From an uncultured Clostridia bacterium (GTDB taxonomy: Bacteria; Bacillota; Peptococcia; Peptococcales; Peptococcaceae), in contig CALXUG010000008.1 of NCBI GenBank assembly GCA_944391625.1, forward strand, positions 1-64,000: 64,000 nucleotides of DNA, given 5' to 3'. Within the stretch, counting starts at the first letter, position 1. Every line of letters begins with the position of its first letter. Below the pieces are notes generated by a model, which worked only from the letters and a program-made list of their open reading frames with translations, searched no databases and was not told where the DNA came from. Of the stretch, positions 37,565-47,557 are shown one piece after another. A program made the translations under genes and the position numbers.

Positions 37565-37607
37565 AGAGCTGAGTGAAACGATAAAGTTTCACTCAGCTCT
37601 ATTTTTT
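37565..37607 (+). terminator. Strong terminator after lysS
   Basis: A 15-bp perfect stem, AGAGCTGAGTGAAAC (37565-37579) with GTTTCACTCAGCTCT (37586-37600), 6-nt loop, then ATTTTTTT. Confidence 0.9.
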
Positions 37608-37801
37608 TATGTCTTTTATTTTTGTGGTTTGGGAATCTTTTATACGGTTTTGTTTTTTTGAGTATATTATTTGTAACTTTATTGTGAAATATTCCAGATG
37701 AAGAATACTGAAAATAATTCAAGTATCGATAATTATTTCAAAAATTATTGAAGTATCAACATCTATCAAAAGGTTTTGATATTGTTGAGTAAAAAATAAA
37801 A

Positions 37802-37835
37802 ATATGTCCCAATATTGACAGATATGTCCCAGTAT
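37802..37835 (+). promoter_or_regulatory. Paired direct-repeat operator at the AAA/S8 promoter
   Basis: ATATGTCCCAATAT (37802-37815) and ATATGTCCCAGTAT (37822-37835) are 14-bp copies with one mismatch, exactly 20 bp apart. They cover the region just before the -35 and nearly the whole spacer, the position expected for repressor binding. Confidence 0.7.
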
Positions 37836-37843
37836 GATATAAA
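37815..37843 (+). promoter_or_regulatory. Promoter of the AAA ATPase / S8 protease module
   Basis: Perfect TTGACA (37815-37820), 17-bp spacer, TATAAA (37838-37843), about 30 bp before the GTG start. Confidence 0.8.
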
Positions 37844-37873
37844 GAGTATAGTAGAATAAAAGGGGGGCGTATC

Positions 37874-38923
37874 GTGAAAAAGAAAAATGTTATAAGTTTA
37901 ATAAAATATTATACAGAAAAAAATGATGTGAGTTTTCGCAATGAAGCTTATGAAATTGCGAAGGAATTTGATGCATCGGGAGATTATCAGCTTGCGGAGT
38001 ATGTTATGTCGTTATTATCCAATGTGAACACATTTGTACCACAGGTAGCAGAAAATGTGTCTCCTTTTTTTGAAAAAATTGATTCTACTGTTGATATGTT
38101 GTTACTTCCTGATGAAATTACAAATGACTTGATAGGAGTGGTAAATGCAATTGAACATCACATTGGAATTAATAAGTTCCTTTTTCAAGGAGCTCCAGGA
38201 ACTGGAAAAACGGAAGCGGTAAAGCAATTGGCACGAATCTTAAACAGAGAGATTTTTATGGTAGACTTTTCTGCTGTTATAGATAGTAAACTTGGCCAGA
38301 CACAAAAAAATTTGTCTATGTTATTTAAAGAAATAAATCAATTTGTTCAACCCCATAAAGTAATAGTGATGTTTGATGAGATTGATGCATTAGCATTGGA
38401 TCGTACAAATCAAAATGATTTGAGAGAAATGGGGCGAGTAACCTCGGCAATGTTAAAAGAGTTTGATAGAATGAATGAAAATGTTGTTTTGGTTGCAACA
38501 ACGAATCTTTATCAGTATTTTGATAAAGCGTTGATAAGAAGATTCGATTCTGTTATTGATTTTAACCGTTATTCGCAGGAAGATCTTCTTTCTATCGCCG
38601 AAAAAATGCTGGATAGATATCTTGATAAGCTGAAACTTGCGAATAGGGACATTAGATTGTTCAGAAAAATAATGAAATTAATGCCACAACTACCATATCC
38701 GGGAGAACTAAAAAATTTGATTAAGACGTCAGTTGCTTTTAGTAATCCAAATGATGGCATGGATTATTTTAGAAGATTATACTATGCAGTATGTAATGAA
38801 AAGCCGGAAGACTTGAAAAAATTGAAGAACCAAAAATTTACAATTAGGGAAATGGAAATATTGGTAGGAAGATCTAAAAGTAGTGTGGCTCGTGATTTGA
38901 AAGAAGGTGTAAATGATGAATAA
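37874..38923 (+). CDS. AAA+ ATPase of an ATPase/subtilase module
   Basis: A 349-residue single-domain AAA+ ATPase. An N-terminal helical part (about 1-75) precedes Walker A GAPGTGKT (106-113), Walker B VIVMFDEIDALAL, sensor 1 VLVATTNL and the arginine-finger region KALIRRFDSVIDF. The C-terminus has a helical lid and ends in a helix-turn-helix-like VGRSKSSVARDLKEG. It starts at GTG 37874 behind AGGGGGGCG and overlaps the protease gene by 11 bp. Base use is much more AT-rich than in neighbouring genes, pointing to transfer. The likely role is to unfold or deliver substrates to, or regulate, the partner protease; this is inference. Confidence 0.88.
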   Translation: MKKKNVISLIKYYTEKNDVSFRNEAYEIAKEFDASGDYQLAEYVMSLLSNVNTFVPQVAENVSPFFEKIDSTVDMLLLPDEITNDLIGVVNAIEHHIGINKFLFQGAPGTGKTEAVKQLARILNREIFMVDFSAVIDSKLGQTQKNLSMLFKEINQFVQPHKVIVMFDEIDALALDRTNQNDLREMGRVTSAMLKEFDRMNENVVLVATTNLYQYFDKALIRRFDSVIDFNRYSQEDLLSIAEKMLDRYLDKLKLANRDIRLFRKIMKLMPQLPYPGELKNLIKTSVAFSNPNDGMDYFRRLYYAVCNEKPEDLKKLKNQKFTIREMEILVGRSKSSVARDLKEGVNDE

Positions 38924-41186
38924 TGTCTTACAGCTTAAGGGAAGATTTGAGCAACGACCAAATAGTTCAAGACCAGGCCTTCCGAAACTTCCAAAAGGGA
39001 AAAGTGTTTCGGCAGCACATCTTTGTGAATTAGCAGAGCAGCTGAATAGAATTCTTGACTATTGGACAAAAAATACAGATATTGGTGGTGCTTTAGTAAG
39101 TGTCCATTATAAGCATATAGTTGCGAAAAGTAATCGACTGAAAATTCTTCTGGCGGAAAATGGAAAATCACCAACAGACTCTATTCGAGGTGTTAAATTT
39201 GCTTGGGAGCCGGATGATGCAGACAGAGAAGTGCAAAAGCATGTTTTTACTCATTTTGTTTCACTAAAAGCAATAGAAAAATCAATTGAAGTTCTAAATA
39301 ATACGGCAACGATTATTAAAAAACATTACAATGGGTCTATTGATAGTAAGATTATAGAGGCATTGGATAAAAAAGCAAAATATAGTTTTAATGAAGTATC
39401 CAAAACCAATTTTTTTAAAACAGTGGTTGATGGATTTTATGTTGAAAGATTTGATATTGATAGAGCCGCTGAAGAAATAACGGAAGAAGCAATTATCACT
39501 ATCTATCAAACAGGAGTTGATACAAAAAAACTTCTTTCAAAGTTCGGAATTAATATAGTTGATGAGCGTATCATTGATGGAACTACATTAAGGCTGAATC
39601 CTGATGAAGTTAAGTTGTTATACAATAATGCCTCGTATTTGATAGCTATGGGGGTTACAGATTTTTCTGAGATTTCAAGAGAAGATATGTTAGATGTATA
39701 TGAGGATGTAGAAGACGATTTTGGAGTGTCAATTCCGCATCCGAAAAATGAACCAATAATAGGTGTTATAGATACTCAGTTCAATGAAAAAGTGTATTTT
39801 AACAAGTGGGTTGAATATAAAAATTTGTTGGATCCTAATATCCCTTTGACAAAAGAGGACTATGAACATGGAACAGGAGTAAGTTATATTATAGTGGATG
39901 GTCCTCATGGAAATCCAGAACTTGACGATGGTTGTGGTAGATTTCGAGTAAGGCATTTTGGAGTGGCAACACAGAATGGATTTAGTTCTTTTACTGTTTT
40001 AAAAATGATTAGAAATATTGTTGCATCCAATAGGGACATTAAAGTTTGGAATTTATCATTAGGTTCAAAGCTTGAAATTAAGCCGAACTTTATTTCACCA
40101 GAAGCGGCGGAACTTGATCGTATCCAAAGCGAATACGATGTTATTTTTGTAGTAGCGGGTACAAATGTTCCTGTAGGAGTTAGCAAAAAGGATATGAGAA
40201 TTGGTTCTCCAGCAGATTCACTTAATTCCATGGTGGTTAATGCTGTGGACTTTAAGGGAAATTCTGCTTCCTATACTAGGGTTGGTCCAGTTTTATCATT
40301 TTTCCATAAACCGGATGTTAGTTATTATGGCGGCGATGGAGTGGTATATACTGATAAAATGGTTGTATGTAGAGATGACATGGGGGCGGCGTATGTAAAG
40401 GGAACTTCATTTGCTGCACCTTGGATTTCACGTAAGCTAGCATATTTGATCCACATTATGGGATTAAGTCGAGAAGTGGCTAAAGCTCTATTAATTGATG
40501 CAGCAGCTGGATGGAATCGAAAAGATGATGTTTCACATAGAATAGGATACGGTGTTGTACCTAAGCACATTAATGATATTATAAAAACATCTAGTGACGA
40601 AATACGTTTTATTATAACAGGTGTATCGGAGGAATACGAAACTTACACATATAATCTGCCGGTGCCTATTGTAGATAATGCGCATCCATTTTATGCAAGA
40701 GCGACATTGGCATATTTTCCACATTGTGATCGCAATCAAGGTGTAGATTATACGAGTACGGAAATGGACATTCATTTTGGCAGGGTCATTGCCCAAAAAG
40801 GGTCAACAAAGATTAAAGCTATTGATAACAATCAACAATCCGAGGATAAATTGCTTATCCTATATGAGGAAGATGCAAGAAAGATGTATCGTAAATGGGA
40901 TAATATCAAGCATATTAGTGAGGAAATAAAAAACACTAGGATACCACGAAAAGCTTATGATTCTGGTTTGTGGGGGCTTAAGATTAATACAAAAGAGCGC
41001 CTACAGAAAAGAAAAGAACCGCTTCAATTTGGTGTGGTTGTAACATTAAAAGAAATGAATGGTGTAAATCGTATTGATGATTTTGTGAAAATGTGCCTTG
41101 CACGAGGCTGGTTGGTTAATAGGCTTGATATTGAAAACCAATTGGATATATATGCTAAGGCTGAAGAAGAAATTGAATTTGAATAA
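38913..41186 (+). CDS. Subtilisin-like S8 serine protease of an ATPase/subtilase module
   Basis: A 757-residue cytoplasmic protease without signal peptide. The N-terminal 280 residues form an uncharacterised alpha/beta region. The catalytic triad is intact: Asp287 in IIGVIDTQF, His319 in YEHGTGVSY and Ser499 in KGTSFAAPW; the oxyanion region around VVAGTN is present. About 200 residues follow, with EEYETYTYNLPVPI and DFVKMCLARGWLVN. ATG 38913 follows AAGGTGTAA inside the ATPase gene. Two-gene AAA ATPase plus subtilase operons are reported in defence islands (from memory, the names IteA and IteS have been used); homology was not checked. Confidence 0.88.
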   Translation: MMNNVLQLKGRFEQRPNSSRPGLPKLPKGKSVSAAHLCELAEQLNRILDYWTKNTDIGGALVSVHYKHIVAKSNRLKILLAENGKSPTDSIRGVKFAWEPDDADREVQKHVFTHFVSLKAIEKSIEVLNNTATIIKKHYNGSIDSKIIEALDKKAKYSFNEVSKTNFFKTVVDGFYVERFDIDRAAEEITEEAIITIYQTGVDTKKLLSKFGINIVDERIIDGTTLRLNPDEVKLLYNNASYLIAMGVTDFSEISREDMLDVYEDVEDDFGVSIPHPKNEPIIGVIDTQFNEKVYFNKWVEYKNLLDPNIPLTKEDYEHGTGVSYIIVDGPHGNPELDDGCGRFRVRHFGVATQNGFSSFTVLKMIRNIVASNRDIKVWNLSLGSKLEIKPNFISPEAAELDRIQSEYDVIFVVAGTNVPVGVSKKDMRIGSPADSLNSMVVNAVDFKGNSASYTRVGPVLSFFHKPDVSYYGGDGVVYTDKMVVCRDDMGAAYVKGTSFAAPWISRKLAYLIHIMGLSREVAKALLIDAAAGWNRKDDVSHRIGYGVVPKHINDIIKTSSDEIRFIITGVSEEYETYTYNLPVPIVDNAHPFYARATLAYFPHCDRNQGVDYTSTEMDIHFGRVIAQKGSTKIKAIDNNQQSEDKLLILYEEDARKMYRKWDNIKHISEEIKNTRIPRKAYDSGLWGLKINTKERLQKRKEPLQFGVVVTLKEMNGVNRIDDFVKMCLARGWLVNRLDIENQLDIYAKAEEEIEFE

Positions 41187-41198
41187 AAAGGAATTGGG

Positions 41199-41224
41199 CC
41201 TAATGTAATTTCAATTACATTAGG
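41199..41224. other. 12-bp palindromic hairpin after the S8 gene
   Basis: CCTAATGTAATT (41199-41210) and AATTACATTAGG (41213-41224) pair perfectly. No T run follows, so it may be a weak terminator, an element end or a protein site. Confidence 0.45.
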
Positions 41225-41541
41225 TGTTCACTTAGCGCTATTTTTAGGGTTTCACAGTAAAGTGTGTAAATTTTTTTTAGGGCGGGGTTTGTCAAGTAAA
41301 CATTCATGCCGCTTTAGGCTCCACCATAAATGAAACCATGTGATTGCGCAAGTTGCACAAAAATCTTCTTTGGCGTATGATTTAGGTAACGGCAATGGTC
41401 GATTCTATTATGAGCTTGCAGCTCGTCAAGTAAACTGATTTTGTGGCTTCCTCATTTGCACCACCACCTGTCCAGCCGCTTGCGGCAAAAGGACGTACAG
41501 TAAAATAACAACAGACAGAAAGCCGTGCCGTAACTTTTTTT
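41225..41541 (+). other. Structured non-coding region upstream of the IS110 relic
   Basis: No gene is visible. There are an exact direct repeat GTCAAGTAAAC at 41291-41301 and 41425-41435, and hairpins GAGCT-tgc-AGCTC (41412-41424) and GCCGC-tt-GCGGC (about 41476-41487). In IS110-group elements the non-coding end upstream of the transposase encodes the bridge RNA, so this may be a decayed one. Confidence 0.4.
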
Positions 41542-41913
41542 ATGGAGGGAACCCTCTTGGAAAAAATTTACGACAATTGTTGTGGTATTGATGTACACAA
41601 AAAACTTATGGTTGCTTGTTTCCTACATGGAAGGGAACTGGAAATCCGAGAGTTTGGTGCAACAACGCGAGAACTACTTGAACTCGCACAGTGGCTTTTT
41701 GATGGTAATTGAGAAATGGTTGCGATGGAAAGTACCGCTTCTTACTGGAAACCTTTATATAATGTACTTGAATCCTCAGACATTCCTGCGATGGTCGTCA
41801 ATGCCAGAGATATGAAAAATGTACCGGGTAGAAAAACCGATGTGCAGGATGCGGTGGAATTGTCAATAATGGTTGGCTCTACTTTTATTGTAACACTCCA
41901 GTTTATCCATTAG
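41542..41913 (+). pseudogene. IS110-family transposase, N-terminal fragment with an internal stop
   Basis: From ATG 41542 (behind TTTTTTTATGGAGGG-like sequence) the frame reads CCGIDVHKKLMVACFLHGRE, the DEDD RuvC-like start of IS110 transposases. It is interrupted by TGA at 41710-41712 where the family normally has Cys or similar (DGN-stop-EMVAMESTASYW). Then VVNARDMKNVPGRKTDVQDA follows. After about residue 110 the family sequence is lost, so the central part and the Ser-containing C-terminal domain are missing. The relic is inactive. It marks insertion at the edge of the AAA/S8 region. Confidence 0.85.
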
Positions 41914-42090: not shown

Positions 42091-42126
42091 ATGAGCAAAT
42101 GTAAGGTTGTTGCCAATGATTACTAG
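42091..42126 (+). CDS. Possible 11-residue leader peptide
   Basis: ATG 42091 has a good ribosome site (TAAGGAGCGGCA) and encodes MSKCKVVANDY. Its stop TAG lies in the AGGAGGG ribosome site of the deacetylase gene, so its translation could control initiation there. Short frames with ribosome sites also arise by chance. Confidence 0.35.
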   Translation: MSKCKVVANDY

Positions 42127-45847: not shown

Positions 45848-45882
45848 AACTATATAAAATAAATATAATAGGAGTGAAAAAC

Positions 45883-46266
45883 ATGATAAAAATTCAAAAG
45901 ATGTCTGAAACAGAAAAAAAACTGATGGAATTAATCTGGAATGCGGAAGATTTGCCGGTAACTGCTTCTGAAGTGCAGCAGTTGGCCGGCTCCATAAAGG
46001 ATTGGAAGCATACCACAATTGCAACTTTTTTGCAAAACCTTTGTCAGAAAGGAATTTTGCGGGTGGTAAAAAAGGGTAATACCAATTTGTATTATCCGCA
46101 AATTACAAAGAATGAGTATTTACATTTTGAGACAATCTCCTTTTTTCAAGAGGTGCATAATGGCTCGGTGCAAAGTTTCCTGAGTGCTTTGTGTGCGCAA
46201 GAAGGAGAACTGGCATTGGATGAAACCCAGATTGCTGAGTTGAAAGATATGATTCATCGTTTATAG
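45883..46266 (+). CDS. BlaI/MecI-family repressor (pair 3)
   Basis: A 127-residue winged-helix repressor: MSETEKKLMELIWNAEDLPVTASEVQQL, WKHTTIATFLQNLCQKGILRVVKKGNTNLYYPQI, then the dimerisation block HNGSVQSFLSALCAQEGELALDETQIAELKDMI. ATG 45883 lies eight bases after GGAG. It is more divergent than pairs 1 and 2 (SFLSALC in place of SLVASLYDG) and its operator differs (TACTA half-sites). The M56 gene follows 43 bp later. Confidence 0.93.
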   Translation: MIKIQKMSETEKKLMELIWNAEDLPVTASEVQQLAGSIKDWKHTTIATFLQNLCQKGILRVVKKGNTNLYYPQITKNEYLHFETISFFQEVHNGSVQSFLSALCAQEGELALDETQIAELKDMIHRL

Positions 46267-46309
46267 GAATTTTTGGAGTTATTTTGGGAGCAAGAGAGGG
46301 GTGTGCAGA

Positions 46310-47557
46310 ATGACCGCATTATTGGGAACGATCGGCATATTATCGTTGGTTGGTACAATCACATTTTTATTATTATTGTTGATGCAGGCTGTGCTGAAAA
46401 AATATCTTCACGCTTCATGGTTCTATGGGAGTATACTTTTTCTCTCTTTATTTTGGATTTTGCCTTTATGGAAATTTGTTCCCCAAGTTTCAACTGCTGC
46501 CTATACCTTCTTTGCCATAGATGCCATGCAATCAATTATAGTGCCGGATACTGGCACAACTGCACCGGCAAAAACATACACGTATCTGGTTTGGCTTGGA
46601 GGGCTCTATTGCCTGGTTGTGTGCATTCTGGTTATGCGCTTTATCTGCCAGTACAAAAAGCAGCAGGACATGCTGTTGCAAAACAGTTGGTTTATTACTG
46701 ACTGTGCGGATATAGAATGTCTGAAATCGTTACTATCTCAATATCGGATAAATAATACAGTTCAGTTAAAATCCAGTCCGCTCACTAATACACCGCTTTT
46801 ATTGGGATTTTTTCGCTATACCATCATTTTACCAAACTGTACCTTACAGCCTGAGCAGCTGCGGCTTGTACTGCAGCATGAGCTGATTCATTTAAAACGG
46901 CGCGATAACTGGTGGAAGATATACATGAAATTGCTTTCTTGCATTTATTGGTTTAACCCTATTATTTACCTGCAAAGCAGCCTGTTTGATAATTTTTGTG
47001 AATTATCCTGCGATGAAAAAGTGGTACGCCATTTAGATTTATCACAGCGAAAACAATATGGTTTATTGATTTTGGAGTTTGTTCAGCAAGGCTCCGTTAT
47101 CCCTAAAAATTGCAGCGCATTGCAGCAGAATATGGATTTGTTAAAAAAACGATTGCTGCATATTGTGCAATATAAAAAAAGCAGAAAAGAAATTGGTTGC
47201 CTATTTATTATTTTATTAGGAATGACGTTTCAAGTTGGTTGTAGTTTATCAACTGGACTTCACACTCCTGAACCAATACAGCAAGAAAATTTAGTAAATC
47301 GGAATTCCGTTAGCATAAATGAAAATAAGGTTTTTGAGCAAAAACCAATTGAAAGTTTTTTCTGGCAAGAAAAAGAAGGCGAAGATAGTATTATATTGTT
47401 TATCAATTCAGAAAAATATGAAATATCAGGTTCTCAGGTTGGTACATTTTCTGCAGGGCCGAAAGAAATACAGCAATATTGGGAAGCACTGGCAAGATTA
47501 CCTGAGAAAGATTTACCAAGTAATTTGAATTCTTTTTTAGATGAAACTTACAGATAG
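46310..47557 (+). CDS. BlaR1-like M56 metallopeptidase (pair 3)
   Basis: A 415-residue membrane protein with several N-terminal helices, the zinc site HELIH (His190-His194 in QHELIHLKRRDNW), IYWFNPIIYLQSSLFDNFCELSCDEKVVRH, and a last membrane segment near 300 (GCLFIILLGMTFQVGCS). The extracytoplasmic tail is about 105 residues and has no penicillin-binding domain. ATG 46310 follows AGAGGGGTGTGCAG. A T6 tract (47533-47538) just before the stop and a 44-codon overlapping frame (47541-47675) leave open a recent C-terminal frameshift. Confidence 0.88.
   Translation: MTALLGTIGILSLVGTITFLLLLLMQAVLKKYLHASWFYGSILFLSLFWILPLWKFVPQVSTAAYTFFAIDAMQSIIVPDTGTTAPAKTYTYLVWLGGLYCLVVCILVMRFICQYKKQQDMLLQNSWFITDCADIECLKSLLSQYRINNTVQLKSSPLTNTPLLLGFFRYTIILPNCTLQPEQLRLVLQHELIHLKRRDNWWKIYMKLLSCIYWFNPIIYLQSSLFDNFCELSCDEKVVRHLDLSQRKQYGLLILEFVQQGSVIPKNCSALQQNMDLLKKRLLHIVQYKKSRKEIGCLFIILLGMTFQVGCSLSTGLHTPEPIQQENLVNRNSVSINENKVFEQKPIESFFWQEKEGEDSIILFINSEKYEISGSQVGTFSAGPKEIQQYWEALARLPEKDLPSNLNSFLDETYR

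What the first reader, a model, noticed from the sequence alone, without database searches (positions are those of the whole stretch)
37601..41240. AAA+ ATPase / subtilisin-like protease module on an AT-rich island
The two genes overlap by 11 bp, share one strong promoter, are far more AT-rich than their neighbours and lie between lysS and a decayed IS110 element. All catalytic residues are intact (Walker A 106-113; Asp287, His319, Ser499). The protease has no signal peptide, so it acts inside the cell, and its N-terminal 280 residues are unassigned. The layout fits a defence or abortive-infection system, with the ATPase controlling a toxic protease.
Basis: partly seen in the sequence, partly recalled or inferred. 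Interest (0 to 1): 0.75.

Follow-up and report, generated by a model that had tools for sequence, protein, structure and literature searches.

The report
Mobile IetAS-type protease toxin–antitoxin module
A small mobile pair of genes, a probably toxic protein-cutting enzyme and the ATP-driven protein that probably restrains it, has inserted next to a housekeeping gene; the pair is a distant member of a known phage-defence and toxin–antitoxin family (IetAS), and it carries an apparently undescribed, strictly conserved DNA switch that the restraining protein may bind to control its own production.

Summary
An AAA+ ATPase gene (37874-38923) and an S8 subtilase gene (38913-41186), overlapping by 11 bp and with intact motifs, form an AT-rich (34.6% vs 44.9% GC) insertion between lysS and an IS110 fragment. 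It is not a new system: PADLOC matches are IetA (8e-39) and IetS (2e-62), a pair already listed as anti-phage, and homologous pairs (SGI1 SgiAT, Mycoplasma mycoides TA132/3) are proven toxin–antitoxin modules. The window belongs to a divergent mobile clade, mostly gut Clostridia (79 loci, 46-90% identity), far below NCBI's curated IteA/IteS cut-offs. The new part is regulatory. IetA ends in a conserved, modelled helix-turn-helix. In 64 of 72 relatives, and in 6 of 6 further genomes from a separate search, two TGTCCC boxes 20-21 bp apart precede ietA; in the window they straddle the promoter. DNA homology between loci begins at this operator and ends at the ietS stop, so operator+ietA+ietS moves as one unit. 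Relatives with altered helices (M. hyorhinis, two Macrococcoides) lack the boxes. I infer that the AAA+ antitoxin also represses its own operon. Toxicity, DNA binding and phage defence were not testable here.

The parts
37565..37600 (+). Terminator-like hairpin behind lysS; separates ietAS from the lysS transcription unit
   Evidence: 15-bp stem, 6-nt loop, T-run
37805..37811 (+). Operator box 1, TGTCCCA, just upstream of the -35
   Evidence: Tandem GTCCC boxes 20 or 21 bp apart in 64 of 72 relatives and in 6 of 6 further genomes from a separate search; the exactly spaced pair occurs once in the own genome
37815..37843 (+). Promoter: TTGACA (37815-37820), 17-nt spacer, TATAAA (37838-37843)
   Evidence: Sequence; conserved positions in the 58-locus column count
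37825..37831 (+). Operator box 2, TGTCCCA, inside the promoter spacer
   Evidence: As box 1; 20 bp start-to-start
37874..38923 (+). ietA-like AAA+ ATPase (349 aa, GTG start), predicted antitoxin/regulator
   Evidence: PADLOC IetA PDLC02196 E=8e-39; Pfam AAA E=3e-26
38189..38212 (+). Walker A GAPGTGKT (IetA 106-113)
   Evidence: invariant among 45 relatives except A107
38813..38911 (+). C-terminal helix-turn-helix of IetA (residues 314-346; predicted recognition helix 335-346)
   Evidence: AlphaFold2 three helices, block pLDDT about 86-92; F322, T323, R325, E326, I327, L330, S334, K335, S336, R340, L342 invariant or at least 90% conserved; weak Pfam HTH matches
38913..41186 (+). ietS-like S8 subtilase (757 aa), predicted toxin/effector
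   Evidence: PADLOC IetS PDLC02197 E=2e-62; Pfam Peptidase_S8 E=4e-30
39489..39659 (+). Prodomain (I9-like) fold in IetS, residues about 193-249, order b-a-b-b-a-b
   Evidence: AlphaFold2 secondary structure; top Foldseek hit is a pro-subtilisin, 3afg; no Pfam hit
39747..40553 (+). S8 catalytic domain (residues 279-547): D287, H319, N418, S499
40599..41054 (+). C-terminal beta-rich domain of IetS (residues about 563-714)
   Evidence: AlphaFold2; Foldseek hits to the longer subtilases KP-43 (1wmd) and SubHal (5fax)
41560..41912 (+). Decayed IS110 transposase fragment downstream, not part of the module
   Evidence: DEDD_Tnp_IS110 E=2.5e-9; frame broken

Best explanation
A horizontally acquired, self-contained IetAS-family toxin-antitoxin/defence module. 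IetS is an intracellular subtilase that is harmful when free. IetA is an AAA+ ATPase that keeps it in check and, through its C-terminal helix-turn-helix, binds the tandem TGTCCCA operator over its own promoter to repress the operon. When IetA is lost, diluted or diverted (most plausibly by phage infection, or by loss of the carrying element), repression and restraint are both lifted and IetS cuts cellular or phage proteins, stopping growth. Shown here: gene anatomy, family assignment, horizontal spread, the conserved helix-turn-helix model and operator, and the unit of transfer. Inferred from homologues: toxicity of IetS and neutralisation by IetA. Inferred only: IetA as the protein that binds the operator, repression rather than activation, the trigger, and the protease targets.
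For: PADLOC: IetA 8e-39 over residues 4-344 and IetS 2e-62; all 45 aligned relatives of each protein also match. The pair is conserved, overlapping or adjacent, in all complete loci. Homologous pairs are proven toxin-antitoxin systems: SgiT is toxic within 30 min and SgiA rescues (PMC5006074); M. mycoides T133 (757 aa) lowers E. coli counts by 5 logs and A132 (353 aa) fully neutralises it in a dual-expression test (PMC8562856). Mobility: absent from 6 of 7 same-genus genomes, with only a 27-30% homologue in the seventh; found in 8 of 399 phylum genomes; nests among Clostridia/Lachnospiraceae with 100/99 support; full-length relatives on plasmids. DNA homology to 11 of 12 relatives starts at 37790-37805 and ends at 41182-41197. 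Operator: GTCCC pairs spaced 20 (56 loci) or 21 bp (8 loci) in 64 of 72; GTCCCA 124 times in 10.8 kb upstream against 273 in 1.73 Mb of background; independent check 6 of 6, five of them only 48-49% identical in IetS. Helix and operator vary together: Carnobacterium keeps both; M. hyorhinis and two Macrococcoides have altered helices and no TGTCCC.
Against: No experiment on this clade. NCBIfam equivalog cut-offs for IteA/IteS are not met (110 vs 510 bits, 154 vs 900) and identity to a named IteS is about 24%, so phage defence cannot be assumed. The helix-turn-helix is short and weak by Pfam (E 0.005-0.1 for the consensus). The operator could be read by another protein or act positively; the SgiAT authors suggested that their operon needs activation (PMC5006074). 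No identified phage carries this clade, so the link to phages is indirect.
Confidence: 0.72

Rival explanations
1. A pure stability (addiction) toxin-antitoxin module that maintains mobile DNA, with no role against phage.
For: SgiAT promotes SGI1 maintenance (PMC5006074), and relatives sit on plasmids of Carnobacterium and Macrococcoides. In one relative (L164) ietS has four in-frame stops while ietA is intact, the decay pattern of a toxin-antitoxin pair.
Against: Most relatives are chromosomal copies among varied, often housekeeping genes, where nothing obvious is being stabilised. The family is listed as anti-phage in PADLOC and NCBIfam, and some relatives lie beside restriction or other defence genes.
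Confidence: 0.3
2. The TGTCCCA pair is the site of a host regulator, and IetA's C-terminal helices serve protein contacts, not DNA binding.
For: The helix-turn-helix is short and only modelled; no DNA contact has been tested.
Against: The boxes travel with the module across many families while the DNA upstream is unrelated. Motif pairs elsewhere in 399 genomes are no commoner than the reversed control, about 37 against about 39. Boxes are missing where the helix is altered.
Confidence: 0.12
3. AAA+ unfoldase and protease forming a two-part quality-control machine (like PAN/FtsH/Lon) with a housekeeping role.
For: Foldseek and sequence hits of IetA are to proteasomal ATPases, Vps4 and Cdc48.
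Against: Patchy distribution (8 of 399; absent from most of its genus), mobile behaviour, and proven toxicity of homologous subtilases.
Confidence: 0.05

Closest known systems
IetAS / IteAS anti-phage system (PADLOC IetA/IetS; NCBIfam NF042959, NF042956)
   Same: Two-gene operon, AAA+ first, S8 subtilase second; profile matches to both. An Acidovorax IteA and an Agrobacterium homologue also end in helix-turn-helix-like stretches by eye.
   Different: Only 24% (IetS) and 34% over the AAA core (IetA) identity to Acidovorax IteAS; the N-terminal ~245 residues of IetS do not align; far below NCBIfam cut-offs; the TGTCCCA pair is absent upstream of the Acidovorax and Agrobacterium pairs.
Mycoplasma mycoides subsp. 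capri TA132/3 (PMC8562856)
   Same: AAA-ATPase (353 aa) antitoxin and subtilisin-like toxin (757 aa), nearly the sizes found here (349/757); spread by horizontal transfer. A mycoplasma homologue held here (M. hyorhinis) is 41.5% identical along the whole IetS.
   Different: TA132/3 itself was not aligned here. The paper's main text contains neither 'helix' nor 'DNA-binding'. The M. hyorhinis homologue lacks the helix-turn-helix consensus and the boxes.
SgiAT (S026-S025) of Salmonella genomic island 1 (PMC5006074)
   Same: AAA-ATPase antitoxin and subtilisin-like toxin, operon order A then T, proven toxicity and rescue.
   Different: Genes separated by 20 bp rather than overlapping; its closest kin is the Ti-plasmid IetAS pair according to the paper; SgiAT was not aligned here.

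Membership tests
IetAS (PADLOC sense) | Adjacent AAA+ ATPase and S8 peptidase genes in one operon | tested here: met
   (co-transcription itself not tested)
IetAS (PADLOC sense) | IetA profile match | tested here: met
   PDLC02196 E=8e-39 over nearly the whole protein; 45 of 45 relatives
IetAS (PADLOC sense) | IetS profile match | tested here: met
   PDLC02197 E=2e-62 over residues 246-744; 45 of 45 relatives. The N-terminal third is not covered.
IteA/IteS anti-phage equivalogs (NCBIfam) | Score above the curated cut-off | tested here: not met
   110 of 510 bits and 154 of 900 bits: not that equivalog subfamily
IetAS | Intact Walker A/B and Asp-His-Ser triad | tested here: met
AAA-ATPase/subtilase toxin-antitoxin (SgiAT, TA132/3) | Subtilase toxic alone, neutralised by the ATPase | not testable with these tools
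   Known only for homologues
IetAS | Protects against phage | not testable with these tools
   None for this clade
Type II-like autoregulated antitoxin | DNA-binding domain on the antitoxin and an operator at its own promoter | tested here: inconclusive
   Helix-turn-helix modelled; operator strongly conserved and lost together with the helix; binding itself not shown

The most novel reading that the evidence does not exclude
IetA is a bifunctional AAA+ antitoxin: its assembly restrains the IetS protease and, through its C-terminal helix-turn-helix, binds two TGTCCCA boxes two helical turns apart on its own promoter. One event that alters IetA's assembly or nucleotide state (for example phage takeover) would then release both the protease and transcription of more of it.
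Probability: 0.4. Interest if true: 0.55.

Novelty: new member of a known kind. Interest (0 to 1): 0.4.

Why it matters
Papers read here call the IetAS mechanism unknown (PMC11878078, PMC9958689). A large gut-Clostridia clade of the system, the exact boundaries of its mobile unit, and a strictly conserved operator matched to a helix-turn-helix on the ATPase give a concrete, cheap test of how the module is kept off and what could switch it on.

Tried and rejected
Empty-site comparison at lysS: relatives have lysS and the downstream deacetylase gene on different contigs, and homology stops at about 37451 and resumes at 42125, so a clean empty site could not be shown. Viral contigs: no relative. 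Phage records: two UNVERIFIED faecal scaffolds carry this clade; the rest are distant subtilases. Pfam on the IetS N-terminus: nothing significant. Solved structures by sequence: none for IetS. Consensus promoter scan: no better than shuffles. Neighbour genes of 55 relatives: some restriction and other defence genes but mostly varied other genes; no control set was run, so no defence-island claim is made. Literature searches found no paper describing an IetA helix-turn-helix or operator, but the original Ti-plasmid paper and the 2020 defence-system paper were not retrieved, so priority is not certain.

Full report
What is there. Two genes on the + strand, 37874-38923 (AAA+ ATPase, 349 aa) and 38913-41186 (S8 subtilase, 757 aa), overlap by 11 bp. 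The Walker motifs and the D287/H319/S499 triad with N418 are intact and conserved among relatives. The pair is 34.6% GC in a 44.9% GC window; in 59 of 66 relatives it is likewise more AT-rich than its flanks. Upstream lies the lysS terminator (37565-37600); downstream lies an IS110 fragment. The other neighbours are ordinary (GAPDH, GreA, LysS, polysaccharide deacetylase, D-Ala-D-Ala carboxypeptidase, M16 peptidase), and none of ten tested matches a defence profile.

What it is. PADLOC assigns the two proteins to IetA and IetS, the AAA+/subtilase pair listed among anti-phage systems. NCBIfam also picks IteA/IteS but far below the curated cut-offs, and Acidovorax IteS is 24% identical: this is a divergent branch. 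One scan of genome contigs gave 79 loci encoding the branch at 46-90% identity, mostly gut and rumen Clostridia, with single bins from other phyla that may be binning errors. Every locus complete on its contig has both genes in the same order. Homologous pairs have been tested: SgiAT of SGI1 (PMC5006074) and TA132/3 of M. mycoides (PMC8562856) are toxin-antitoxin modules with the subtilase as toxin and the ATPase as antitoxin.

It is mobile. Six of seven same-genus genomes lack it, and the seventh has only a different, 27-30% identical subtilase with a canonical-type ATPase; several of those genomes are incomplete. In the phylum, 8 of 399 sampled genomes carry the branch. The tree places the window with L018 (89%) inside a Clostridia/Lachnospiraceae group. 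Between the window and 11 of 12 compared relatives, DNA homology begins at 37790-37805 and ends at 41182-41197; for the twelfth it begins at the ietA start codon. The conserved unit is thus operator + ietA + ietS.

The operator. In 64 of 72 relatives with an upstream stretch, two GTCCC boxes lie 20 bp (56) or 21 bp (8) apart upstream of ietA. GTCCCA occurs 124 times in 10.8 kb upstream against 273 in 1.73 Mb elsewhere in the same loci, roughly 70-fold enrichment; the loci are related, so this is not 72 independent events. In the window the boxes are 37805-37811 and 37825-37831; the second lies inside the 17-nt spacer of TTGACA/TATAAA, a typical repressor position. A separate search supplied seven other genomes; one (G085) repeats L041 and is set aside. 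The remaining six, five of them only 48-49% identical in IetS, all have the pair at 20-21 bp, and L161, L162, L164 and L165 keep it although the TTGACA between the boxes is not kept, so the boxes are not conserved merely as part of the promoter. Across 399 genomes the bare 14-letter pattern is no commoner than its reversed control, and among the loci examined only the window and G085 hits lie before ietA.

The likely reader. IetA ends in GFTVREIEILTG.SKS.V.RELK. AlphaFold2 models three helices (314-319, 324-331, 335-346) at block pLDDT about 86-92. Carnobacterium (53% IetA identity) keeps this helix and the boxes. M. hyorhinis has a degenerate end (KNKHQGITQQ) and no boxes. Two Macrococcoides have SISTLSREVKK and no TGTCCC; one of them has a different 10-mer repeated at 20 bp. 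This joint change of helix and boxes is my main reason for naming IetA as the binding protein; it rests on three exceptions, two of them close relatives.

IetS architecture. The model (mean pLDDT 79.6) shows an N-terminal alpha/beta region, a b-a-b-b-a-b unit at about 193-249 like subtilisin prodomains, the S8 domain, and a C-terminal beta-rich domain. The best solved match is pro-Tk-SP (3afg), followed by KP-43 and SubHal. An internal prodomain suggests that IetS is made as a zymogen; that is inference.

Mechanism and confidence. Shown: anatomy, family, mobility, operator conservation, helix-turn-helix model. Inferred from homologues: IetS toxicity and IetA neutralisation. Inferred only: autorepression, trigger, targets. 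Phage defence is the family's label, not a result for this clade; an addiction role fits part of the evidence, including one relative with broken ietS and intact ietA (L164).

Verdict. Ordinary in kind (a new member of IetAS), with an apparently undescribed and directly testable regulatory feature. Neither of the two functional papers read here mentions it in the passages searched, but the founding papers could not be read.

Noticed in passing
window 45874-47557: A BlaI-type repressor (Penicillinase_R) and BlaR1-like M56 peptidase pair on a second AT-rich segment (GC about 0.32-0.41).
   Followed up: partly
L164 (G192:C1:2140130-2142235): A relative in which ietS has four in-frame stops while ietA and the operator are intact, as expected when a toxin is lost first.
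   Followed up: partly
L002 (G008:C39): A same-genus genome carries a different, canonical-type IetAS (27-30% identical subtilase) whose ATPase also ends in a helix-turn-helix-like stretch.
   Followed up: partly
L017:8586-10394 and L033:8288-10152: Two distant relatives have similar-looking gene pairs directly behind ietS; DUF6414 (PF19952) was found in two of the neighbour proteins.
   Followed up: no
L155, upstream of 1944 (Macrococcoides caseolyticum plasmid): TTTTTCATTA repeated at 20 bp where other relatives have TGTCCCA, possibly a re-tuned operator matching its altered helix; not seen clearly in the M. canis relative.
   Followed up: partly
L157 (MT838181.1): An UNVERIFIED faecal 'Bacteriophage sp.' scaffold holds a complete pair of this clade; it could be bacterial DNA.
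   Followed up: partly
window 37451 and 42125: Synteny with same-genus genomes breaks on both sides of the insertion: lysS and the deacetylase gene are on different contigs there, suggesting a rearrangement as well as an insertion.
   Followed up: partly
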